From NCBI GenBank assembly GCA_943789335.1, contig CALSTS010000002.1:1-64000 (forward strand): a DNA stretch of 64,000 bases, in the 5' to 3' direction. The position numbers and the translations under genes were made by a program. Below are positions 566 to 11,724 of the stretch, piece by piece. The notes beneath the pieces were generated by a model, which ran no database searches, was not told the DNA's origin, and worked only from the letters and a program-made list of their open reading frames with translations. Source of the DNA: an uncultured Pseudomonadales bacterium (GTDB lineage Bacteria; Pseudomonadota; Gammaproteobacteria; Pseudomonadales; Pseudohongiellaceae). Position 1 is the first letter of the stretch; each line of letters begins with the position of its first letter.

Positions 566-1689
566 ATGAGCAAAAGAGATTATTACGAAGTACTCGAAGT
601 TGAAAAAGGCGCCTCTGACAAGGAGCTTAAGAAGGCCTATCGACGTATTGCCATGAAACATCACCCGGATAGAAACCCAGATGATGATAAAGCAGAAGCT
701 CGATTCAAAGAAGCCAATGAAGCTTATGAGATTCTTTCAGATAGTGAAAAGCGTGCTGCCTATGACCAATTTGGTCATGATGGAGTAGACCCTCAAGGTT
801 TTGGCGGGGGAGGCGCACAAGGTTTTGGCGATGTTTTCGGCGATATCTTTGGCGATATATTCGGCGGTGGTGGACGTTCCCGTTCACATGTTCAACGTGG
901 TGCCGATTTAAGTTATACCCTCGATTTAAACCTGGAAGATGCGGTTAAAGGTTCCAGTGTCAAAATTCGTATTCCCACCAGTGTGGCGTGTAAAACCTGT
1001 GATGGTAGTGGCGCAAAAGAAGGAACCACACCTGAAGATTGTGCCACTTGTGGTGGTGTCGGGCAGGTTAGAATGCGCCAGGGACCATTTTCAGTTCAAC
1101 AAACTTGTCCCACGCTGTCAAGGTGCTGGCAAAACCATAAAAGATCCTTGCCATAGTTGTCATGGGCGTGGTGCTGTTCAGGAAAAATAAAACTCTCTCA
1201 GTTAAAGTGCCTGCTGGTGTTGATACCGGCGACCGAATTCGTTTATCCGGTGAAGGTGAAGCAGGGCTGCATGGCGGGCCACCGGGCGACTTGTTTGTAC
1301 AAATGAATGTGAAAGCCCATTCAATTTTCGAAAGGGATGGTCGTGACTTATTTTGTGAAATTCCAATTAGTTTTACTGATGCGGCTTTAGGTGGCGAGTT
1401 GGAAGTGCCAACATTAGAAGGTAAAATTAAATTAAAAATTCCTTCAGAAACCCAAACCGGAAAATTATTCAGGCTGCGCGGAAAAGGTGTGACACCTGTA
1501 AGAGGTGGATCAAAAGGTGATTTGCTTTGTCGAGTTGTTGTTGAAACACCGATTCATCTAACTAAACGTCAGAAAGAAATTCTGAATGAATTCACAGAAA
1601 TTCAAACCAGTCAGGGTGATCGGCAGTCGCCGAAAAAGACGTCGTGGTTTGATGGAGTGAAGAAGTTCGTCGATACTCTAAAACCCTGA
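566..1689 (+). CDS. dnaJ: Chaperone DnaJ (Hsp40), with two apparent frameshifts
   Basis: DnaJ delivers substrates to DnaK and stimulates its ATPase. The J domain has the HPD motif at residues 33-35, followed by a Gly/Phe-rich region (about 75-105), four CxxCxGxG zinc repeats ([32 protein letters not shown]) and the C-terminal substrate-binding domains ending in TLKP. The frame breaks twice. One extra C in the CCC at 1109-1111 interrupts the third zinc repeat. An extra T at 1188, splitting a run of nine A, interrupts the sequence just after the fourth. Removing both restores a full-length DnaJ of about 373 residues. Both breaks sit at homopolymers, so sequencing error is more likely than a real pseudogene. 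Confidence 0.95.
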
Positions 1690-1710
1690 CCTGATCTGAA
1701 CTATTACGCT

Positions 1711-1800
1711 TGCTATTACTTCGTTAAAATAAAATTTAGATCAGTCACATACTATTTAGTATGCTCCTTCTCTAAATTTTGTTTTGCTTCATCTTAGCTG
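1711..1800. repeat. Intergenic palindromic element, copy A
   Basis: This is a nested inverted repeat. The inner stem is CATACT/AGTATG (1748-1753 with 1758-1763), the middle stem is AAAATTTAGA/TCTAAATTTT (1731-1740 with 1771-1780), and the outer stem is GCTA/TAGC. A diverged copy with the same architecture lies at 38390-38477 after infB. Inner-stem differences between the copies keep the pairing, which suggests selection on structure or a shared mobile origin. It lies in the gap between dnaJ and the next gene (1690-2019), where I see no gene. Confidence 0.6.
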
Positions 1801-1903
1801 CACTCATTGCGCGTAGTTTAAGAAAGCCTCTCATTAATTCCAACTTTCGCTGCGTCTAAGCATCAATCGTGATGCTCATAAAATTAAAAAAAAGAAATTG
1901 ATT

Positions 1904-1937
1904 TAATGTCCGATGTCGGGCGAAAGCGGACATTAAG
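1904..1937. repeat. Inverted repeat containing the CGGACATT motif
   Basis: The arms TTAATGTCCG and CGGACATTAA form a perfect 10-bp inverted repeat around the loop ATGTCGGGCGAAAG. The right half (CGAAAGCGGACATTA) recurs in shortened form near 3688-3700 and 63379-63396, so it looks like a dispersed intergenic motif. It lies downstream of the minus-strand gene that ends at 2020 and could act in its 3' end. Confidence 0.5.
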
Positions 1938-2019
1938 GTAGAAGGTAAAAACTATATTCATGAGTCTCTCTTGGCAATACCGAGGGAACGAGAATACCCA
2001 ATACATAAAATTGATTTAG

Positions 2020-2307
2020 CTAGATTGTGCGCGCTACTTCACCTTCTGCAATCACATCAATTGTCATGCCAAATTGCTCAGTCATTGGCTTAAGTAGCTC
2101 TTGAACTAGTGAGACTGCAGCTTCGGCAGCAGCTTTATCATGGTATGTGCTTACTAGAAGCCATTTATCGGTACCAGCTTCAATCATTTGATGTCCCGCA
2201 TGAAATTCGCTGGACTGGATTGCTGGTGTCAATACAGAGTCATAATGTTCCAACAGCTTAGCTGCATTATTTGGATTACAACCGATCCAATATGTTTTTG
2301 CATACAT
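2020..2307 (-). CDS. Small dimeric alpha/beta-barrel (antibiotic biosynthesis monooxygenase-like) protein
   Basis: This is a 95-residue cytoplasmic protein with no signal peptide or membrane segment. Its make-up (short beta strand, long helix, HAGHQMIEAGTDKWLLVSTY, second amphipathic helix) resembles the ferredoxin-like fold of the dimeric alpha/beta-barrel superfamily, which contains ABM-type monooxygenases and stress proteins. I assign the fold from pattern only; no catalytic residues can be named and no substrate can be inferred. The ATG at 2305-2307 is preceded by an AAGGAAA ribosome-binding site. The gene stands alone. The 2308-2783 gap on its upstream side holds promoters at most. Confidence 0.5.
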   Translation of the reverse strand: MYAKTYWIGCNPNNAAKLLEHYDSVLTPAIQSSEFHAGHQMIEAGTDKWLLVSTYHDKAAAEAAVSLVQELLKPMTEQFGMTIDVIAEGEVARTI

Positions 2308-2783
2308 CTTTAAATTTCCTTGTAGTTATTAAGTTATGTTGGCGCCTAGAATAGAAAAAGTGTTAAATTTTGGTGAGTAGTATTTTTATAGGCATTAAAT
2401 TTATAGCATATTTTATCGATGGCAGTATAAAAGCAAGTAACCCAGTGTTCGCTGCGGTTAGATAGAGGACATAATGAACTTTCAGTTAATACCTTTGTAA
2501 ACTTTTCTTACACAGGGAAGCGGCCTAATCTTGGAACAAATTCCGTAATAGAGTTTATGGGGTAAAGGGATTTTGACCGAATGATAAGTAATGGTGATGT
2601 AGTGAAAGCTTCTACTGAAGATCGGCTCTATCGGTATCGTAAAGATCTAAGTGTCACTTCTGATTAAAATAATTTATTTCAACTAGCTGTTTTTAAATGA
2701 GTATTTAACTTTGCACCCTTATTGCTTCTGTTACTATAAGCTTACATTTTACTAAAAAATATTTTAATTAAAAGGAAGTGGAA

Positions 2784-3511
2784 ATGACTGTTAACTCTGA
2801 AAGTTCAGAAATTTTGCAAGAATCTGTCAATTCGAAAAGGCAAAGAGCTGTTGTTGAACTTCTAGCATTTGTTGTATTCGCACTGGTTTCTAAAGAAGTA
2901 ATGGATCCTATTCAGGGCCAGCTTCATTAATCACTACGCTCATTATATTAACTATTTATATTCACCGGCGTGGTCAGAATTGGCGCTCTATGGGGCTGTG
3001 TAAGCTTCCAGGGCTAAAAGCTAAGTTGCTGGTTGTTCCGCAAGCAATGGCAATATTTGTAACGGTTCTTTTAAGCATTGTCCTTCTTACAAAAGGACTC
3101 GAGGCTATAGGGCTAACTTTCATGTCAGAACCTATTGATGGAGAAGTTGAGCGCTGGGGAGACCTTCAAGGCAATTTACCCATGTATCTAATATTGATTG
3201 CCTTATCCTGGGTTAGCGCAGGCTTTGGTGAGGAAATGTTTTTCAGGGGCTTCCTGATTACCAGGTTACAAACTGCTTTTAATAGCATTAAGTTTTCTTC
3301 AGCTATTTCAGTTTTGCTCGCAGCACTTTTGTTCGGTTATGTACATTACTACTACCAAGGTGTGGCGGGATTAGTTAATGCAGGAGTCATTGGTGTCATC
3401 TTCGGTATGTATTTTTTGCTTTATAAACGCAACTTGTGGCCACTTGTTGTCGCGCATGGCTGCATTAATTCTTTAGGTTTTACATCTGAGTTCATGGGGT
3501 GGGGCTTATAA
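2784..3511 (+). CDS. CPBP-family intramembrane metalloprotease, one apparent frameshift
   Basis: CPBP (Rce1/Abi-like) proteins are multi-pass membrane metalloproteases; substrates in bacteria are mostly unknown. The three family motifs are present: EEMFFRG (the EExxxR signature), the downstream His in FGYVHYYYQG, and a last His in AHGCINSLGF. Several hydrophobic segments surround them. The ATG at 2784 has an AAAGGAAG ribosome-binding site. The first frame stops at about 2930, but a missing base near 2911-2914 joins the N-terminal helix (ending VMDPIQ) to GPASLITTLIILTIY in the frame that carries the motifs. Either it is a recent pseudogene or, as with neighbouring genes, an indel error. If repaired it is about 242 residues. 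Confidence 0.75.
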
Positions 3512-3770
3512 AAAAGTTAAGAATGAATTAAGTAAGAATGAATGAATGGTTATTAAAAAGTGAGGGGGGGAGTCGAAGCTAACCGGCAAACTCTAAAAGT
3601 TTATTCATTAACTTTATCAATCAAAACAATAAAGGATTTAATAGATTAATAATGGTTATGTTTTGAGTGTCTACTTGCTACCTAAAGCGGACATTAGTCT
3701 TAATAGCGCTTTTTTCTTAATTCTTAGTTAGAATCAGTCAACAATACTAATAATAATGGAAGAAATAATC

Positions 3771-4469
3771 ATGTTGACCAATATTCGAAGAAAGTTGAGT
3801 TTGTTAGCGGTTTTCACCAGTGTTGCACTAACTGCAGTGTCCATAACAGGGTTTGCCCAGGAAGAAGCGGAGCGACCTGCTTTGCTATTTATGGAAACCT
3901 GGCAGCAATCTGAATCTGCGCTCGGAAGACCCATGAGCAGCCATGCCTCAGATAATGATTACTACTTGGCAGGGCAAAATGCTGTATCGAGCAATGATCT
4001 TGAACTTGGTCTTTATGGTTATAGAGCAGAAGACATTACGGTTTATGAGCATGAAGGACGTATTGATCTATGGACTGGGCTAGCCGGCTCTCCGGTTGCG
4101 GTGACGTTAAAATCCCGACGTGGATATATGGATCTAAGAGGACTTGCAAGAATGCGGGCAATCGTTCGCACAAACAATCTGCATGCACTTCACCCGGTTA
4201 TCAAACTTGCTGATGGTGTGCTTGCAGTAGGCAGTCAGTCTATTGAGACTGGAGGCGCTTTTCTCAGTGTTGAAGTGGCCTTTGAAAATCAGGATTGGTT
4301 TGTGCTTGACCCAGAAGAAGTAGCTGTAGGTGGTGCAGTTATGGATTTAGATCTGAGCCGAGTTGATGAAGTTGGCTTCGCCAATCTTTCTGCCGGAGGC
4401 GGGCATGGTTTTGCTGGTTGGAGTAATATCTCGACGCTAGAAGTCTTTTCTAATTCAATAACACGATAA
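3771..4469 (+). CDS. Secreted protein of unknown function, upstream of a sulfatase
   Basis: I do not recognise this family. The ATG at 3771 is chosen over the one at 3756 because GGAAG lies about 9 bases before it. The N-terminus has a clear signal peptide (basic start, hydrophobic core, cleavage near GFAQEE). The mature part is about 200 residues, rich in short beta-strand-like segments with no cysteine pairs. The C-terminal stretch (VDEVGFANLSAGGGHGFAGW) looks like a jelly-roll or galactose-binding-type sandwich, but this is inference. It ends 13 bases before the sulfatase start, so the two are probably co-transcribed and act together outside the cytoplasm. Confidence 0.7.
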   Translation: MLTNIRRKLSLLAVFTSVALTAVSITGFAQEEAERPALLFMETWQQSESALGRPMSSHASDNDYYLAGQNAVSSNDLELGLYGYRAEDITVYEHEGRIDLWTGLAGSPVAVTLKSRRGYMDLRGLARMRAIVRTNNLHALHPVIKLADGVLAVGSQSIETGGAFLSVEVAFENQDWFVLDPEEVAVGGAVMDLDLSRVDEVGFANLSAGGGHGFAGWSNISTLEVFSNSITR

Positions 4470-4482
4470 AATTTGGAAAATA

Positions 4483-6060
4483 ATGGTGACTAAATTTAAG
4501 CCTTTACTCGGAATTTTCATGTTTGGGTTGAGCATGCATACAGGAGCGGTTAGTGCCGCCGACTCTTCAACTAATGCAGGGCAGGTGGAACCTATGAATG
4601 TCCTGTTCATCATGGCGGATAATCAGCCTGCAGCTATTCTTGGCGCCTATGGTAATCCCGACGTGCGAACGCCAAATATCAATCAACTTGCATCTGAAGG
4701 TGTTCTATTTACTAACGCGTTTGCCGTGAACGGTATGTGTTCACCGACTAGGGCTACTTTGATGACCGGCTTAATGCCTTCTCAACATGGCGTGCATAAC
4801 TGGCTTGATGACGCCAAGCTAGATGAATGGCCAGATGATTGGTCTGTTGTCGCCGAATACAGAACCTTACCGCAGACATTAGAAAACCGAGGCTATCAAA
4901 CTGCAATGATCGGCAAATGGCATATGGGTCAGCCTTGGCAGGCGTCAATTGGCTATCAGCATTGGGTCACTTTTACTTACGGTCACACCTTGGATTTCTG
5001 GGACAATACTATTGTTGATAACGGTGAAACTTACCAAATTACCGATCGCCATATTGTCGATTTTTTTACGGAAGAAGCTGTCGACTATATTGAAAATGTT
5101 GATCATGATCAGCCATTCTATTTACAACTTAATTTCGACGGCCCCTACCTCAATCCGCCAACAAACACTGGGCCGGCAAGAAATCGTCATTATGAGTCTT
5201 ATCTGGATGAAGATTTTGAATCATTCCCGCGAGTGCCAGTTAATGAAAACATCCTTGACCAACTTTTAGACCCAGACACTCCAGCTTTTATGAAGAATCA
5301 GCACCGGCAATCAATTCTTCATCACAATGATCCTGAATCTATGGCTAATGTTGCCTCGCAAAATACGATAGTTGATGATGGTGTTGGTAGAGTCCTTGAA
5401 GCTCTCAAGCAAGCCGGCCTGGATCAGAACACACTAGTAATATACTCATCTGACCAAGGTAATTTCTATGGCCAGCATGGTTTATGGCAGCACACTATAG
5501 TAACGACACCAAGCAACCTATATGAAGCGGCACTTAATATCCCGCTTATCATTCGTCATCCAGGTTCAATTGCTGCAGGTGAAACAAGTGATTTGTTTAT
5601 TGGCCAATATGATATGGCAACGACAATACTCGACTATATAGGCATAGATGACGTTGAGTTTGAAAACAGTCCTGGAAATAGTTTCGCTAATTCATTGCTT
5701 GGCGAATCTATCGATTGGGAAAACGAAGTTTATTATGAACAAGAAGAATCACGAGGCGTTCGCACCCCAGAATTTGCTTACTGGAAACGCATAGATAGCC
5801 TGGGCGATAGTGAACTCTATGATATGACAAACGACCCTGGGCAATATTTCAATCTTATTGCTGATCCCGATTATCAGAGCATAGCAGCAGAACTAGATCG
5901 TAAAGTAAGGTCATTTTACGAAGAGTATTCAACTGAAAAATATGATCTCTGGAATGGTGGTACCGCTAAGGGTTCTGTTGCACGCCCAGGAATTTTCCAG
6001 GCCTTACACGGCGACCAATGGAAAACAGTCAGTGAGTCGCTGCCGCCTTTTGAAGAATAA
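4483..6060 (+). CDS. Secreted sulfatase (formylglycine-dependent, type I)
   Basis: The enzyme hydrolyses sulfate esters, probably in the periplasm. An N-terminal signal peptide (cleaved near VSAAD) precedes the alkaline-phosphatase-fold domain. The maturation motif CSPTR starts at Cys86, the residue converted to formylglycine. Metal-binding residues are visible in FIMADNQ (the usual Asp-Asp pair reads Asp-Asn) and in YSSDQG. The GKWHMG motif typical of sulfatases is also present. At 525 residues it is of usual length. Substrate cannot be told from sequence: a polysaccharide or small sulfate ester are both possible. A sulfatase-maturing enzyme is not in the window and must be encoded elsewhere. 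Confidence 0.9.
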   Translation: MVTKFKPLLGIFMFGLSMHTGAVSAADSSTNAGQVEPMNVLFIMADNQPAAILGAYGNPDVRTPNINQLASEGVLFTNAFAVNGMCSPTRATLMTGLMPSQHGVHNWLDDAKLDEWPDDWSVVAEYRTLPQTLENRGYQTAMIGKWHMGQPWQASIGYQHWVTFTYGHTLDFWDNTIVDNGETYQITDRHIVDFFTEEAVDYIENVDHDQPFYLQLNFDGPYLNPPTNTGPARNRHYESYLDEDFESFPRVPVNENILDQLLDPDTPAFMKNQHRQSILHHNDPESMANVASQNTIVDDGVGRVLEALKQAGLDQNTLVIYSSDQGNFYGQHGLWQHTIVTTPSNLYEAALNIPLIIRHPGSIAAGETSDLFIGQYDMATTILDYIGIDDVEFENSPGNSFANSLLGESIDWENEVYYEQEESRGVRTPEFAYWKRIDSLGDSELYDMTNDPGQYFNLIADPDYQSIAAELDRKVRSFYEEYSTEKYDLWNGGTAKGSVARPGIFQALHGDQWKTVSESLPPFEE

Positions 6061-6098
6061 TTAGCACTATTCTTAACAATTTTTTGATGGAGCCTTCA

Positions 6099-6956
6099 AT
6101 GAATAAATTTATGACACGCATTTTATTCACCTGCTTAATAGTACTCCCTGTCGCTGGATTTGCAGCAGAAAACCCTGATTGGACACGTTCATTTCCAGGT
6201 CACCGAGTGATCGGCAATCTTTATAGTGTTGGCACTTACGATTTGAGTGTGTTTTTGATTACCTCTGAAGCTGGTCATATTCTGATTAATACTGGTCTGG
6301 AAGATTCCACTGAGCAGATTAAAGATAACATTGAAGACTTAGGCTTTGCCTTGGAAGATGTGCGTATATTGCTCACCCAACAGGCACACTGGGATCATGT
6401 AGCAGCACTGGCTGAGATTAAACAAATCACGGGTGCAGAAGTGTGGGCGACTAAAGACGATAAGAGGGTGCTTGAAGATGGCGGCTTTAGTGATGCACAT
6501 TTTGGTGGACGTCAAACTTTCGAGCCCTTAGCCGTTGAGAAAATTATTGTGCAAGATGATCTCATTGAATTAGGCGATATTCGTTTAACGGTTCATGATC
6601 ATCCGGGCCATACTGAAGGCAGTTCCAGTTATGCCATGCTGGTGCAAGAAAATGGCCGGGAGTACAGGGTACTAATCGCTAATATGGGTTCCGTGAATCC
6701 TGGAAAACAACTAGCCGTTGACCCAACCTATCCTGGAGTCGCCGCTGACTTTGCGCATACCTTCACGCATCAAAAAAGCTTAGAGCCTGATGTCTGGGTA
6801 GCAGCCCATGCAATTCAGTATGATATGCATTCCAAATGGCAGCCGGGGCAAGCCTATAGTCCAGATACTTTTGTCGATCCAGAAGGCTACCTTGCTGCAG
6901 TAGAAAGTCATGAACAGGCCTTTCTAGAAGCCATGGCTTCTGAGCGAATCGAATAA
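6099..6956 (+). CDS. Subclass B3 metallo-beta-lactamase, GOB-like (Gln at position 116)
   Basis: This is a periplasmic zinc hydrolase with a signal peptide (cleavage near GFAAEN). From the ATG at 6099 (GGAG ribosome-binding site before it) the zinc ligands are Gln95-Ala-His97-Trp-Asp99-His100, His171 in HPGHTEGS and His237 in AAHAIQYDMH. In standard numbering these are Gln116, His118, Asp120, His121, His196 and His263. The Gln116 variant, the following LIANM (Met at about 221) and stretches such as ILINTGL and DLGF are hallmarks of the GOB branch of B3 enzymes. Beta-lactam hydrolysis is inferred from the family; B3-fold relatives without that activity exist. It follows a sulfatase and precedes an OFA transporter. 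Confidence 0.85.
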   Translation: MNKFMTRILFTCLIVLPVAGFAAENPDWTRSFPGHRVIGNLYSVGTYDLSVFLITSEAGHILINTGLEDSTEQIKDNIEDLGFALEDVRILLTQQAHWDHVAALAEIKQITGAEVWATKDDKRVLEDGGFSDAHFGGRQTFEPLAVEKIIVQDDLIELGDIRLTVHDHPGHTEGSSSYAMLVQENGREYRVLIANMGSVNPGKQLAVDPTYPGVAADFAHTFTHQKSLEPDVWVAAHAIQYDMHSKWQPGQAYSPDTFVDPEGYLAAVESHEQAFLEAMASERIE

Positions 6957-6965
6957 AAAGGTTGC

Positions 6966-8672
6966 TTGTCTCCTTTATTAATTATGTCTGGCTTACTCTC
7001 TAAAGAACGTATCGTTGCTCAGCCAGGTTTCAACCGCTGGAAAGTCCCTCCTGCCTCAATAGCTATACATTTATGTATTGGCTCTGTGTATGCATGGAGC
7101 ATATTCAATCTTCCTTTAACCAGAGCATTTGGTGTTGTGGCGCCAGCTTCCAATGACTGGAGTTTGCAGGACGTCACCTGGATATTTTCTGTTGCGATTG
7201 TTGCCCTCGGATTATCAGCTGCCTTTGCGGGCCGCTGGTTAGAAAAAGTCGGCCCTCGTATGGTCGGCGTTGTGGCTGCGATATGTTGGGGAGGCGGATT
7301 TCTAATTGGTGCACTTGGCATTTATATGCATCAACTTTGGTTACTTTATTTAGGTTATGGCGTAATTGGAGGTTGTGGGCTTGGCTTAGGATATGTTTCC
7401 CCGGTGAGCACCCTAATCCGTTGGTTCCCAGATCGTAGAGGTATGGCGACCGGCATGGCTATTATGGGTTTTGGTGGTGGCGCGATGATTGGTGCACCAT
7501 TGAAGCGTTTTTTTATTCAACGGTTTTATGAAGCGCCAGAGTATCTAGGCACCGTTGATCAGTTAACTCTCATAACACAAGCGGGTCGGCGATTTGTTGA
7601 AAGAGCTGGCGAGCAACTTGAAGTGGTGGTGATTGGCGCCAACGATGTTGCCAGTATGCTTGTGCCAGGTCCCGAAGGGATTTATGTCGTAGGCACTGGT
7701 TCAGTAGGAGTGGCTCAAACCTTCCTGGTTTTAGGGGCGCTTTATTTTGTTGTTATGTTGATTGCTGCGTTTTCTTATCGAGTGCCGGCTGAAGGTTGGC
7801 AGCCAGAAGGCTTTGTTGCCCCGACAGAAGATTCTGAGCAACGCAGCATGTTGACCACGCATAATGTCGATATTGATGAGGCCTTAAAAACACCACAATT
7901 TTACCAACTCTGGATTGTGCTTTGCATGAATGTCTCAGCCGGAATTGGTGTGCTCGGTGTTGCCAGTACCATGATGAGTGAAATTTTTGGTACAACCTTA
8001 CCATCTATTGTTGATGGTGCTTTTGCAGCGACTTATGTCAGCATGATCTCTGTATTTAATATGGTGGGTCGATTTATCTGGGCCAGTTCATCGGATTATA
8101 TTGGGCGTAAAAATACTTACTGGATCTTTTTTGCTTTAGGTATTGTGCTTTATTGTTCTGTGCCTTTTGCTGCACAACAAGTGAGCGTCAATCCTGCTGT
8201 GACTTGGCTGGTATTATTTTATGGCGCTACCATGGTTATCTTTACTATGTACGGTGGTGGATTTGCAACTATCCCCGCTTATCTGGCGGATGTGTTTGGC
8301 AGCAAATATGTAGGCGGTATTCATGGGCGCTTACTCACTGCCTGGAGTACAGCTGGCGTACTAGGTCCACTAGCCATTACCTCTTTGCGTGAATCAGCGA
8401 TAGCTCGAGCTATTGAACAATTGGCAAGTCAGGTAAATCCGGCTGATTTTCAGACACAATTTGGTGCTGGTTTAGATCAGTTGGATCAGTTGGTTGCTGC
8501 GCAAACTGTGACCATCTCACGATTGATGGAAATTGTACCTGCGGGTACTGTCGACCCAACGTCCGGGTTATATAACGGTACAATGTATCTCATGGCTGTG
8601 ATGCTGGCGGTGGGTCTGGTTAGTAATTATTTAATGAAGCCAGTAAATGAAAAACATTACCTTAAGGAATAA
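6966..8672 (+). CDS. MFS transporter, oxalate/formate antiporter (OFA) family
   Basis: This is an inner-membrane 12-helix major facilitator of 562-568 residues. The opening (VPPASIAIHLCIGSVYAWSI) and the segment GYVSPVSTLIRWFPDRRGMA are characteristic of the OFA family, whose members exchange small organic acids. The cytoplasmic loop motif between helices 2 and 3 (GRWLEKVGPR) is present. A long extra loop of about 70 residues sits between helices 6 and 7. The start is unclear: TTG 6966 follows an AAAAAGG site, while the ATG at 6984 lacks one. It closes the block of four same-strand genes that begins at 3771. Substrate unknown. Confidence 0.8.
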   Translation: MSPLLIMSGLLSKERIVAQPGFNRWKVPPASIAIHLCIGSVYAWSIFNLPLTRAFGVVAPASNDWSLQDVTWIFSVAIVALGLSAAFAGRWLEKVGPRMVGVVAAICWGGGFLIGALGIYMHQLWLLYLGYGVIGGCGLGLGYVSPVSTLIRWFPDRRGMATGMAIMGFGGGAMIGAPLKRFFIQRFYEAPEYLGTVDQLTLITQAGRRFVERAGEQLEVVVIGANDVASMLVPGPEGIYVVGTGSVGVAQTFLVLGALYFVVMLIAAFSYRVPAEGWQPEGFVAPTEDSEQRSMLTTHNVDIDEALKTPQFYQLWIVLCMNVSAGIGVLGVASTMMSEIFGTTLPSIVDGAFAATYVSMISVFNMVGRFIWASSSDYIGRKNTYWIFFALGIVLYCSVPFAAQQVSVNPAVTWLVLFYGATMVIFTMYGGGFATIPAYLADVFGSKYVGGIHGRLLTAWSTAGVLGPLAITSLRESAIARAIEQLASQVNPADFQTQFGAGLDQLDQLVAAQTVTISRLMEIVPAGTVDPTSGLYNGTMYLMAVMLAVGLVSNYLMKPVNEKHYLKE

Positions 8673-8757
8673 AGTCGATTTTTATCGATTTGCATATGTG
8701 CCCCTTTGAAGGACATGTAATAGAATAGTCAGTAAATCAAAGACGCAGGTAAGAATT

Positions 8758-9558
8758 ATGTTGAATGTGGCAATTGGCGGTTCAAATGGCCGAATGGGAA
8801 AATCACTTGTCCAAGCCGCTATGGATGAGCCTAAAATATCTATAGGCGCGGCATCAGTCACTGAGAATTGTCCTTCTTTAGGCGAGGATGTTGGTTTGAT
8901 CAGTGGAGTAGGACCACTGCATGTGGTTACGGTTGATGATTTTGAGCAAGTCATGGATGATTTCGACTTAATGTTTGATTTCACAGGTACTGAAGCAACC
9001 ATAATGCATTTAGATTTGTGCAGTCGTTATGGAAAAAAAATGGTGATCGGAACAACCGGATTCACCCTTGAAGAGAAGCAACACATTAAGGAAATCAGCG
9101 AGAAAATCGCTATCGTATTTGCCCCTAATATGAGTGTTGGTGTGAATGTCTTGTTTAAATTGATTGAACAAGCCACTGCGGTGCTTGGTGACTCCAGCGA
9201 TATTGAAATTATAGAAGCCCACCATCGTCATAAAGTTGATGCCCCGTCAGGTACGGCTTTGCATATGGGTGAAGTTGCTGCAGGAGTATTAGGCAGAAAT
9301 TTATCTGATGTTGCTGTATATGGTAGAGAAGGCCTTGTTGGAGAAAGACAGGATAAAACTATTGGCTTTGAAACCATTCGCGCCGGAGATATTATTGGAG
9401 ACCATACTATTATGTTTGCCAGTCCTGGTGAGCGTATTGAAATCACTCATCGATCCAGTTCGCGCATGAACTATGCTGCTGGTGCAATTCGCGCTGCACT
9501 TTGGTTACAAGACAAGGAAAATGGCTTGTACAATATGCAGGATGTTCTGGGTTTATAA
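8758..9558 (+). CDS. dapB: 4-hydroxy-tetrahydrodipicolinate reductase
   Basis: DapB reduces 4-hydroxy-tetrahydrodipicolinate with NAD(P)H in the lysine and diaminopimelate pathway, supplying peptidoglycan. The protein is 266 residues, the family norm. The N-terminal Rossmann motif is GGSNGRMG, the catalytic loop is IEAHHRHKVDAPSGTA (the HHRxKxDAPSGTA signature), and the C-terminal dimer region is intact. It lies on the conserved dnaJ-dapB-carA axis of gammaproteobacteria, but here accessory genes have been inserted on both sides. Confidence 0.97.
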   Translation: MLNVAIGGSNGRMGKSLVQAAMDEPKISIGAASVTENCPSLGEDVGLISGVGPLHVVTVDDFEQVMDDFDLMFDFTGTEATIMHLDLCSRYGKKMVIGTTGFTLEEKQHIKEISEKIAIVFAPNMSVGVNVLFKLIEQATAVLGDSSDIEIIEAHHRHKVDAPSGTALHMGEVAAGVLGRNLSDVAVYGREGLVGERQDKTIGFETIRAGDIIGDHTIMFASPGERIEITHRSSSRMNYAAGAIRAALWLQDKENGLYNMQDVLGL

Positions 9559-9762
9559 ATAAAAGGCATTTATAAATAGAGGCTTCACGAAAATAATCGC
9601 CATAGCGTATTTTATTAGTCAACTTTACAAGCCCTCGTAGACATATAGGAAAATACTTAGCACTATGAAATCAGAGCTGCTCCGTTAAATCAACTTGCAC
9701 TTCATTGAATAATCAGTATGGTGAAAGTATGTTTTAGTTAGTCAGCAAGAGGTACCTAGAAG

Positions 9763-11724
9763 GTGAGTAAAAAAGATAATAAAGCAAATATAGATTTATC
9801 CATTACGCGCAGGGATTTTGTTAACTCAACTTTGCTGGGTAGTGGAGCAGCTCTTCTTGCAATGCAGGCACCCTCATTTGCGCAGACACGAAGGGTAGAG
9901 ACATTAACACCGGGTGTTGACGAAAGCTGGTACGGCTATGGCGGTATCGGTGATTATGCCCCTTCACACGGCAATAGTCCTGAAGTCGTTAATATGGCGC
10001 ATAATTTACGAGATGGCATGTATGACGATGATAGCGATATCGACATTATCGATCTTGACGAAACATATGACCTGATCATCGTTGGAGCAGGTATGGCAGG
10101 ATTAGGTGCGGCATATGAATACAGTAAAACCGCAAGCCCTGAGCAAAAATGCTTGATGATCGAAAATCATCCGATCTTTGGTGGCGAGTCAAAAAGAAAC
10201 GAATTTGAAGTGGATGGAAGTTTGTTAATTGGTCCGCAAGGTGCAAATGGTTTTTCAGCACCATCAAACGAAGAAGCACTACGTTACCCTGATTTTAATC
10301 CAGATATTCGCTATATGGTTGAGTTGGGTATATCCACGGACTTTAGCTATGCGGAACTTAAAAATACCGACAAGAATATACAACTTGCTAAAGACAGCTA
10401 CGGATTTCAATATTGGCAGGAAGAAATTACCTCAGTGGGCTACTACCTTGGGAAAGATGAAGAAGGGAAAAACCAGTGGTCAGTGGATCCTATTGGCAAC
10501 GGTTACGCGGACATGGACGGATCTGAACAGGATAAACAGGATCTAGAAAATTGGCGCACGTTTAATTTTGAAACACCAGATCAACCGGATTTCGATCGGT
10601 GGATTGATAGTGTTACTTATAAGGAATATGTCGAAGATTATCTTGGCTTTAGCCCGTATGTAACGCGCCATGCGGATGTCATTTTAGCAGGGTCAGTTGG
10701 ACTTGGTAGCGACGCGCTTTCTGCAAACAGTGCCAGAGGGCTAGGTATGCCAATTCTAGGTGGTAATACCGTTCAGCAAACTACTAGCGGACCGAGTGAT
10801 TGGACAAGGCATTCATTGCCAGGTGGAAATGACGGATTTTCACGCCATTTTATTAAGAAGATAATCCCAAATGCTATTGAGGGCGATTATAATTTTAACG
10901 ATATCCTTAACGGAAAAGTTAGATTTTCTGAACTTGATAACCCCACTAACCCTATAAGAATGCGTTTGCGCTCGATGGTTGTAAATGTTGAGCATGACAG
11001 CGCCGATCCAGATAATTCAGAGGGCGTCTTTGTCACATATTCCAATGATAATAAGACTTACCGCGTAAAAACCAAGAAGCTGATTATGGCATCAGGTGGC
11101 TGGGTTAACCAATATGTTGTGCGAGATATGCCGGATGATATTAACGAAGCATATAGTAGTTTCAATCATGTGCCTTTTTTGATTGCTAATGTTGCTGTTA
11201 AAAACTGGCGGTTTATGGAGGAATTGGGCATTAGTAGTAGCGTTTGGAGAGACGGTATTTTTGGCAATTCTTGTAATGTGCGACTCCCCATGACGGTGGG
11301 TGATTACCAACCGGAAATTGATCCAGACAAGCCAGCGATCGTAACTTTTTACGTGCCGTTTTATTATCCTGGGCTTGATATGGTGCAGCAGGGAATTCGA
11401 GGAAGGGCAGAGCTTTTCTCAACTAGTTATGCGGAGTATGAAGAAAAAATTCGCGCACAAATGCTTGAGCTTTTCGGCGAAACCGGCTTCGATCCAGATG
11501 AAGATATAGCGGGGATTATTTTAAATAGATGGGGTCATGCTTATGTAACTCCTCAACCTGGTTTCTTCTTTGGTGTTGATGGTAAGCCTGCTCCAAGTGA
11601 TGTTATTCGCCAGGGGTTTGGCCGCATCGCCTTCGCCCATTCAGAGTTGCAAGGAAATCAGCATTGGGGCCCGGCTGCGGACGAAGGAAAACGCGCGGTA
11701 AGAGAACTGGCGAAGTTTGATTGA
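9763..11724 (+). CDS. Tat-exported FAD-dependent oxidoreductase, spermidine-dehydrogenase-like
   Basis: The start is GTG 9763. The N-terminus carries a twin-arginine signal (TRRDF, residues 15-19, then a hydrophobic stretch ending APSFAQ), so the folded flavoprotein should go to the periplasm. An FAD-binding Rossmann motif follows (IIVGAGMAGLGAAYEY, about residues 105-120), then the GGESKRNEF flavin loop. The opening of the mature part (SHGNSPEVVNMAHNLRDG) resembles the periplasmic spermidine dehydrogenase SpdH of Pseudomonas. The length of 653 fits that group. Oxidation of a polyamine or other amine is inferred, not shown. It stands alone, with about 200 bases of non-coding sequence on each side. 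Confidence 0.7.
   Translation: MSKKDNKANIDLSITRRDFVNSTLLGSGAALLAMQAPSFAQTRRVETLTPGVDESWYGYGGIGDYAPSHGNSPEVVNMAHNLRDGMYDDDSDIDIIDLDETYDLIIVGAGMAGLGAAYEYSKTASPEQKCLMIENHPIFGGESKRNEFEVDGSLLIGPQGANGFSAPSNEEALRYPDFNPDIRYMVELGISTDFSYAELKNTDKNIQLAKDSYGFQYWQEEITSVGYYLGKDEEGKNQWSVDPIGNGYADMDGSEQDKQDLENWRTFNFETPDQPDFDRWIDSVTYKEYVEDYLGFSPYVTRHADVILAGSVGLGSDALSANSARGLGMPILGGNTVQQTTSGPSDWTRHSLPGGNDGFSRHFIKKIIPNAIEGDYNFNDILNGKVRFSELDNPTNPIRMRLRSMVVNVEHDSADPDNSEGVFVTYSNDNKTYRVKTKKLIMASGGWVNQYVVRDMPDDINEAYSSFNHVPFLIANVAVKNWRFMEELGISSSVWRDGIFGNSCNVRLPMTVGDYQPEIDPDKPAIVTFYVPFYYPGLDMVQQGIRGRAELFSTSYAEYEEKIRAQMLELFGETGFDPDEDIAGIILNRWGHAYVTPQPGFFFGVDGKPAPSDVIRQGFGRIAFAHSELQGNQHWGPAADEGKRAVRELAKFD

What the first reader, a model, noticed from the sequence alone, without database searches (positions are those of the whole stretch)
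6099..6956. GOB-like B3 metallo-beta-lactamase in an environmental gammaproteobacterium
The zinc site has Gln at the 116 position and Met near 221, the unusual pattern of GOB enzymes known from Elizabethkingia. Finding it beside a sulfatase and an OFA transporter, with no resistance genes or mobile elements, suggests an old chromosomal gene whose natural role may not be antibiotic defence.
Basis: partly seen in the sequence, partly recalled or inferred. Interest (0 to 1): 0.55.

Follow-up and report, generated by a model that had tools for sequence, protein, structure and literature searches.

The report
Marine GOB-like B3 metallo-beta-lactamase gene
A seawater bacterium's chromosome carries an intact gene for a zinc enzyme of a type that destroys penicillins and carbapenems; it belongs to a known kind that is widespread in the ocean, and what is added here is which marine bacteria carry it and that its unusual zinc-binding glutamine probably arose separately from that of the clinical GOB enzymes.

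Summary
Window 6099-6956 (+) encodes a 285-aa subclass B3 metallo-beta-lactamase, probably exported: it passes NCBI's B3 equivalog cut-off (287.8 vs 240 bits), and its predicted fold matches C. pinensis B3, LRA-12 and GOB-18 at Z about 40. Ligands are Gln/His/His + Asp/His/His, with Met at 221; all 83 rows of the close set keep Gln116 and the five other ligands. It is not a GOB-family member (242.9 vs 560 bits; about 41% identity to GOB-18). In trees Met221 fits shared ancestry with GOB/LRA-12, but a single Gln116 clade is rejected (AU p = 0.0007), so Gln116 probably arose separately. Close relatives (58-81%) occur in 50 of 137 genomes of the host's family (Pseudohongiellaceae-like marine gammas) and in Acidobacteriota. 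The sulfatase and OFA neighbours vary within the genus and say little about function. The gene is chromosomal and under purifying selection; no plasmid or phage record searched exceeds 37% identity. Marine GOB-like sequences of the same identity range, with the same guess about other roles, were published in 2018 without hosts. New member of a known kind; modest interest.

The parts
6099..6956 (+). B3 metallo-beta-lactamase gene (285 aa)
   Evidence: ORF, NF033105 over cut-off, PDB sequence hits, fold match Z about 40
6099..6167 (+). N-terminal Sec-type signal peptide, about 22-23 residues
   Evidence: read by eye; the model has a helix at residues 3-22 with low pLDDT; no signal-peptide program was run
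6381..6383 (+). codon of Gln116 (Q95), Zn1 ligand position
   Evidence: sequence; Gln in 83 of 83 rows of the close set
6387..6398 (+). codons of His118, Trp119, Asp120, His121 (H97-H100)
   Evidence: sequence; His118, Asp120 and His121 in 83 of 83
6609..6611 (+). codon of His196 (H171), Zn1 ligand position
   Evidence: sequence; 83 of 83
6684..6686 (+). codon of Met221 (M196)
   Evidence: sequence; Met in 82 of 83, Leu in 1
6807..6809 (+). codon of His263 (H237), Zn2 ligand position
   Evidence: sequence; 83 of 83
4483..6060 (+). type I sulfatase (CSPTR motif, recalled), 38 bases upstream, same strand
   Evidence: Pfam PF00884 E 3e-45; variable within the genus
6984..8672 (+). OFA/lactate-type MFS transporter, about 27 bases downstream
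   Evidence: NF049980 331.9 bits over cut-off 320; present without the lactamase in G052
4471..6980 (.). 2.5-kb sulfatase + lactamase block, replaced by 32 bases in the sister genome G052
   Evidence: blastn against L076: window 3701-4470 and 6981-9559 align to 7909-8675 and 8708-11283

Best explanation
An intact chromosomal subclass B3 metallo-beta-lactamase of the QHH/DHH (B3-Q) type. It is exported to the periplasm, binds two zinc ions (Gln116/His118/His196 and Asp120/His121/His263), and opens the beta-lactam ring with a zinc-bound hydroxide, giving intrinsic, probably low-level beta-lactam (including carbapenem) tolerance. It is one of a marine lineage shared by Pseudohongiellaceae-like Gammaproteobacteria and Acidobacteriota. 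In our trees its Met221 is inherited with the GOB/LRA-12/Acidobacteriota group, and its Gln116 is convergent with GOB's. Shown: family, ligands, fold, distribution, selection. Inferred: export, zinc content, hydrolysis, physiological role.
For: B3 equivalog over cut-off. Nearest solved proteins LRA-12, GOB-18, C. pinensis B3 and FEZ-1; LRA-12 and GOB-18 are reported strong carbapenemases with the same ligands and Met221 (PMC5531557, passages). AF2 model pLDDT 92.5, fold Z 39.5-40.0 to the three nearest, and the first 42 of 50 listed entries all B3 or B3-like before a drop to 20.4. Ligands invariant in 83 of 83 rows. dN/dS 0.06-0.10. B3-Q enzymes expressed in E. coli conferred resistance (PMC7381538, passages). 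Activity is bracketed on the tree: active GOB/LRA-12 on one side, FEZ-1 on the other.
Against: I found no assay of an enzyme of this lineage. B3-Q enzymes ranked weakest of the resistance-conferring B3 groups in PMC7381538. The close type is absent from 2 of 5 genus members and 87 of 137 family genomes (many are incomplete MAGs), so it is dispensable. No ampR-like regulator or other resistance gene was seen next to it.
Confidence: 0.85

Rival explanations
1. The enzyme hydrolyses beta-lactams only as a side activity; its natural substrate is another ester, lactone or amide (for example an acyl-homoserine lactone or a cell-wall fragment).
For: Marine B3 enzymes MIM-1 and SAM-1 hydrolyse homoserine lactones as well as beta-lactams (PMC7392888, passages). 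The genes live in uncultured environmental MAGs (record titles). Neighbours vary and include gamma-glutamyltransferases in 6 of 81 loci, in both phyla.
Against: Nothing in the ligand set departs from active beta-lactamases. The bifunctional enzymes are canonical HHH/DHH with three disulfides (PMC7392888). No neighbour is conserved across the lineage. Natural beta-lactams exist in the environment (general knowledge).
Confidence: 0.3
2. A direct GOB-family gene recently transferred from Bacteroidota.
For: Shared Gln116 and Met221; GOB and PEDO-1 profiles are the best named sub-families.
Against: 242.9 bits against a GOB cut-off of 560; about 41% identity; one Gln116 clade is rejected, p-AU 0.0007; GC3 0.379 is like its neighbours' 0.35-0.42.
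Confidence: 0.03
3. The sulfatase, lactamase and transporter form one functional operon (for example for use of a sulfated substrate).
For: Same strand with gaps of 38 and about 27 bases; same order in G051. A sulfatase-like gene (by eye) also lies about 2.3 kb downstream in 7 of 81 loci, all Acidobacteriota of one syntenic block.
Against: G050 has lactamase and OFA without the sulfatase, G052 OFA without either, G049 none; 0 of 48 close-type loci of other genera of the family have either neighbour (flanks short at contig ends). In the 7 Acidobacteriota loci another gene stands between.
Confidence: 0.07

Closest known systems
LRA-12 (PDB 5AEB, Alaskan soil metagenome)
   Same: QHH/DHH ligands, Met221, B3 fold; 45-46% identity
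   Different: Pro222 and Tyr119 against Gly222 and Trp119; Gln116 probably of separate origin
GOB-1/GOB-18 (Elizabethkingia, PDB 5K0W)
   Same: QHH/DHH, Met221, B3 enzyme, chromosomal
   Different: about 41% identity; fails the GOB family cut-off; other phylum
Marine GOB-like homologues of the Global Ocean Sampling survey (PMC5895761, passages read)
   Same: 38-44% identity and 56-63% positives to GOB-1 there; our 83 rows give 36-45% and 57-63% to GOB-18. The paper says all carry the position-116 residue that marks GOB (printed 'G116')
   Different: hosts were not identified there; I did not have their sequences, so that the two sets are one lineage is inferred
B3-Q group of Pedroso et al. 2020 (PMC7381538, passages read)
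   Same: QHH/DHH definition; at least six origins of Gln116 reported
   Different: that paper's species list was not seen; whether this lineage was in it is unknown
C. pinensis B3 (PDB 6N36)
   Same: best fold match, Z 40.0, tied with LRA-12 and GOB-18; Asn220 shared
   Different: His116 and Ile221

Membership tests
Subclass B3 metallo-beta-lactamase | NCBIfam NF033105 equivalog score over 240 bits | tested here: met
   287.8 bits
Subclass B3 metallo-beta-lactamase | ligands 116/118/196 and 120/121/263 (HHH/DHH or a known variant), no Cys221 | tested here: met
   QHH/DHH, Met221
Subclass B3 metallo-beta-lactamase | B3 fold | tested here: met
   model pLDDT 92.5, Z 39.5-40.0
Subclass B3 metallo-beta-lactamase | zinc-dependent hydrolysis of beta-lactams | not testable with these tools
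   needs protein
B3-Q variant group | Gln at 116 with the other five ligands unchanged | tested here: met
   window and 82 of 82 other rows of the close set
GOB family | NCBIfam NF012101 score over 560 bits | tested here: not met
   242.9 bits
GOB family | Gln116 and Met221 together | tested here: met
   but Gln116 is not one clade
HARLDQ motif MBL-fold protein (not B3) | NF000405 score over 350 bits and altered ligands | tested here: not met
   161 bits; ligands are not the HARLDQ set

The most novel reading that the evidence does not exclude
A separate, ocean-wide B3 lineage in which Gln116 evolved independently on a Met221 background, moving between Gammaproteobacteria and Acidobacteriota, and whose main job is not drug resistance; it would supply the hosts of the unassigned 'marine GOB' sequences and a second natural experiment in the same metal-site change.
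Probability: 0.25. Interest if true: 0.55.

Novelty: new member of a known kind. Interest (0 to 1): 0.3.

Why it matters
It names likely hosts for GOB-like sequences known only from ocean reads, gives a large set of natural B3-Q enzymes (82 Met221, 1 Leu221) and nearby Acidobacteriota His116/Met221 relatives for testing what Gln116 does, and shows that the lineage is chromosomal, with no close plasmid or phage copy in the collections searched.

Tried and rejected
Function from neighbours: clustering all ORFs round the fetched family loci and then round 81 loci gave no neighbour shared across the lineage. A gamma-glutamyltransferase beside the gene in 3 Vicinamibacteria and 3 gamma loci (about 32% identical across phyla, different sides and distances) is noted but may be chance. 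A sulfatase-like gene about 2.3 kb downstream in 7 of 81 loci belongs to one syntenic Acidobacteriota block.

Direction of transfer between the phyla: the 116-row tree nests most gammas in Acidobacteriota, but a 38-row tree places the two side by side, and one clade of gammas is not rejected (p 0.53). Direction is left open. L109 (Acidobacteria-titled) falls among gammas and L112 (Proteobacteria-titled) near Acidobacteriota; mislabelled bins are possible.

Repeats at the edges of the sulfatase-lactamase block: none that look like an element's ends.

Limits of the trees: only four typed solved-structure references (LRA-12, GOB-18, C. pinensis, FEZ-1), with GOB-18 on a long branch, and the Gln116 test was chosen. 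One search used 116 of 133 rows (L121, L173 and 15 distant rows dropped); one search used 48 of 133 and one search used 38 of 133. In one search one of 42 rows (L188, 19% identity) is probably misframed; it went into the fold job. Plasmid, phage and viral searches: 19 plasmid records at 21-37% identity, 6 phage-collection records at 33% or less, none in viral contigs.

Papers: search listings; passages of PMC5531557, PMC7381538, PMC10318434, PMC5895761, PMC9726936, PMC7392888. That hosts of this lineage are not in print rests in an open-access library only.

Full report
What is there. Window 6099-6956 (+) is a complete 285-codon gene with an ATG start, a GGAG ribosome site and a hydrophobic N-terminus that looks like a Sec signal (signal read by eye). 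It is the only match in its own genome (2.36 Mb, 10 contigs, 91% complete). NCBIfam NF033105 (subclass B3) scores 287.8 against a cut-off of 240; the named sub-families GOB (242.9 of 560), PEDO-1 and ESP-1 follow, all far under their own cut-offs. The nearest solved structures by sequence are LRA-12, GOB-18, C. pinensis B3 and FEZ-1. An AlphaFold model made from 42 sequences (mean pLDDT 92.5; one row, L188, is probably misframed) matches these at Z 37.9-40.0; the first 42 of the 50 listed entries are all B3 or B3-like enzymes, and the next drops to Z 20.4.

Zinc site. Gln116, His118, Asp120, His121, His196 and His263 are present, and Met at 221. Among close-type homologues of the same bacterial family (window plus 50 loci), Gln116 is readable in 49 of 51 rows and is Gln in all 49; Met221 is Met in 51 of 51; the two unreadable rows are a frameshifted gene (L086) and a contig-edge fragment (L087). 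In a second set (window, 80 named loci, 2 sampled Acidobacteriota; two of these rows are identical proteins, and many of the 80 are the same genes as in the first set) all 83 have Gln116 and the other five ligands, 82 have Met221 and 1 Leu221. Trp119 (78 of 83) and Gly222 (75 of 83) mark the lineage; LRA-12 and GOB-18 have Tyr119 and Pro222.

Who has it. The host's family includes genomes whose records are titled uncultured Pseudohongiella sp. (the contig lengths of G134, G135 and G136 equal those of OX638323, OX638341 and OX638378), so the family is most likely Pseudohongiellaceae (lineage looked up). In 137 family genomes, 86 have some B3 match at E <= 1e-20: 50 of the close type (58% identity or more, besides fragments; my count from the rows) and 36 only a distant type (32-39%). 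In an even sample of 369 Gammaproteobacteria only the window's own genome has a close copy, with three others at 36-39% (E <= 1e-45); in 398 Pseudomonadota, own plus 11 at 34-38% (E <= 1e-40). In 396 Acidobacteriota 53 match at E <= 1e-45: 3 close (64-68%), several at 45-50%, the rest 33-46%. The best 80 of 348 GTDB relatives are Gammaproteobacteria/Proteobacteria and Acidobacteriota (Vicinamibacteria, Bryobacterales and others), several of the latter on multi-megabase chromosomes, so they are not stray contigs. One Arenicellaceae-titled MAG also has it.

Trees. With the columns of positions 116 and 221 left out, the proteins with Asn220-Met/Leu/Ile221 form one group (100/99 in 116 of 133 rows; 100/100 in 48 of 133 rows). 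Inside it, GOB-18, LRA-12 and C. pinensis (His116) pair with Acidobacteriota His116/Met221 proteins (99/89; 95/81), and this lineage, with a few further Acidobacteriota Gln116 proteins, is the sister group. Position 116 needs 2 changes; holding all Gln116 rows together costs 46 log-likelihood units, p-AU 0.0007. The simplest reading is one Gln116 origin here and another on the GOB/LRA-12 line; one gain with two reversions needs more steps. Caveats: four typed references only, GOB-18 on a long branch, and the grouping was tested after seeing the first tree. The two phyla need at least 3 changes of label, but direction is unresolved. Multiple origins of Gln116 were already reported (PMC7381538, passages).

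Neighbourhood. In the genus the dnaJ-dapB interval is variable: G049 has none of these genes; G052 an unknown gene and OFA; G050 lactamase and OFA; G051 sulfatase, lactamase and OFA; the window an unknown gene, sulfatase, lactamase and OFA. Against G052 the 2.5-kb sulfatase-lactamase block is a clean presence/absence difference (32 bases in its place). By dapB identity (95, 90, 88, 76%) G052 is nearest and G049 farthest, so loss in G052 is simplest. Outside the genus neither neighbour was found within about 9 kb in 48 close-type loci of the family (flanks cut at contig ends in several). Against this, 7 of 81 loci in a second comparison, Acidobacteriota of one syntenic block, have a sulfatase-like gene (by eye) about 2.3 kb downstream with another gene between. 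Selection is purifying: dN/dS 0.10 and 0.06, with synonymous sites near saturation. GC3 is like the neighbours'. Plasmids: 19 records at 21-37% identity; phage collection: 6 records, 33% or less; viral contigs: none.

What is known. Ocean-survey work in 2018 found 18 GOB-like B3 sequences at 11 sites, 38-44% identical to GOB-1, and already suggested roles other than resistance (PMC5895761, passages). LRA-12 and GOB enzymes are strong carbapenemases (PMC5531557, passages), and B3-Q enzymes confer resistance in E. coli (PMC7381538, passages). Marine B3 enzymes MIM-1 and SAM-1 also cleave homoserine lactones (PMC7392888, passages).

Verdict. An ordinary, intact, old chromosomal B3-Q enzyme of a marine lineage. 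The added value is hosts, conservation and the probable separate origin of Gln116.

Noticed in passing
window 1100-1165: dnaJ is split into two frames here (566-1156 and 1162-1689), whereas G050 and G052 have one ORF; the dnaK C-terminus (39-497) also ends differently from G050's. Probably sequencing errors near the contig end, or real frameshifts.
   Followed up: partly
window 1690-8700 (dnaJ-dapB interval): A variable gene slot between two conserved genes across five genomes of the genus: a CAAX-type protease, a MATE-like pump (by eye), this lactamase and others come and go.
   Followed up: partly
L092, L093, L094 (genera g6, g7 of the same family): B3-like proteins with HHH/DHH ligands but Cys at 221 (Gly-Cys-Asn), the residue that binds zinc in B1/B2 enzymes; L092's protein just passes the B3 cut-off (243.6 of 240).
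   Followed up: partly
L117, L123, L130, L120, L131, L144: A gamma-glutamyltransferase-family gene lies beside the B3 gene in three Vicinamibacteria and three gamma loci, about 32% identical across phyla.
   Followed up: partly
L086 (G131): The B3 gene is in two frames, a possible pseudogene or sequencing error.
   Followed up: no
L214, L215: Pseudomonadota B3-like proteins with Gly at 221 and Asp at 220.
   Followed up: no
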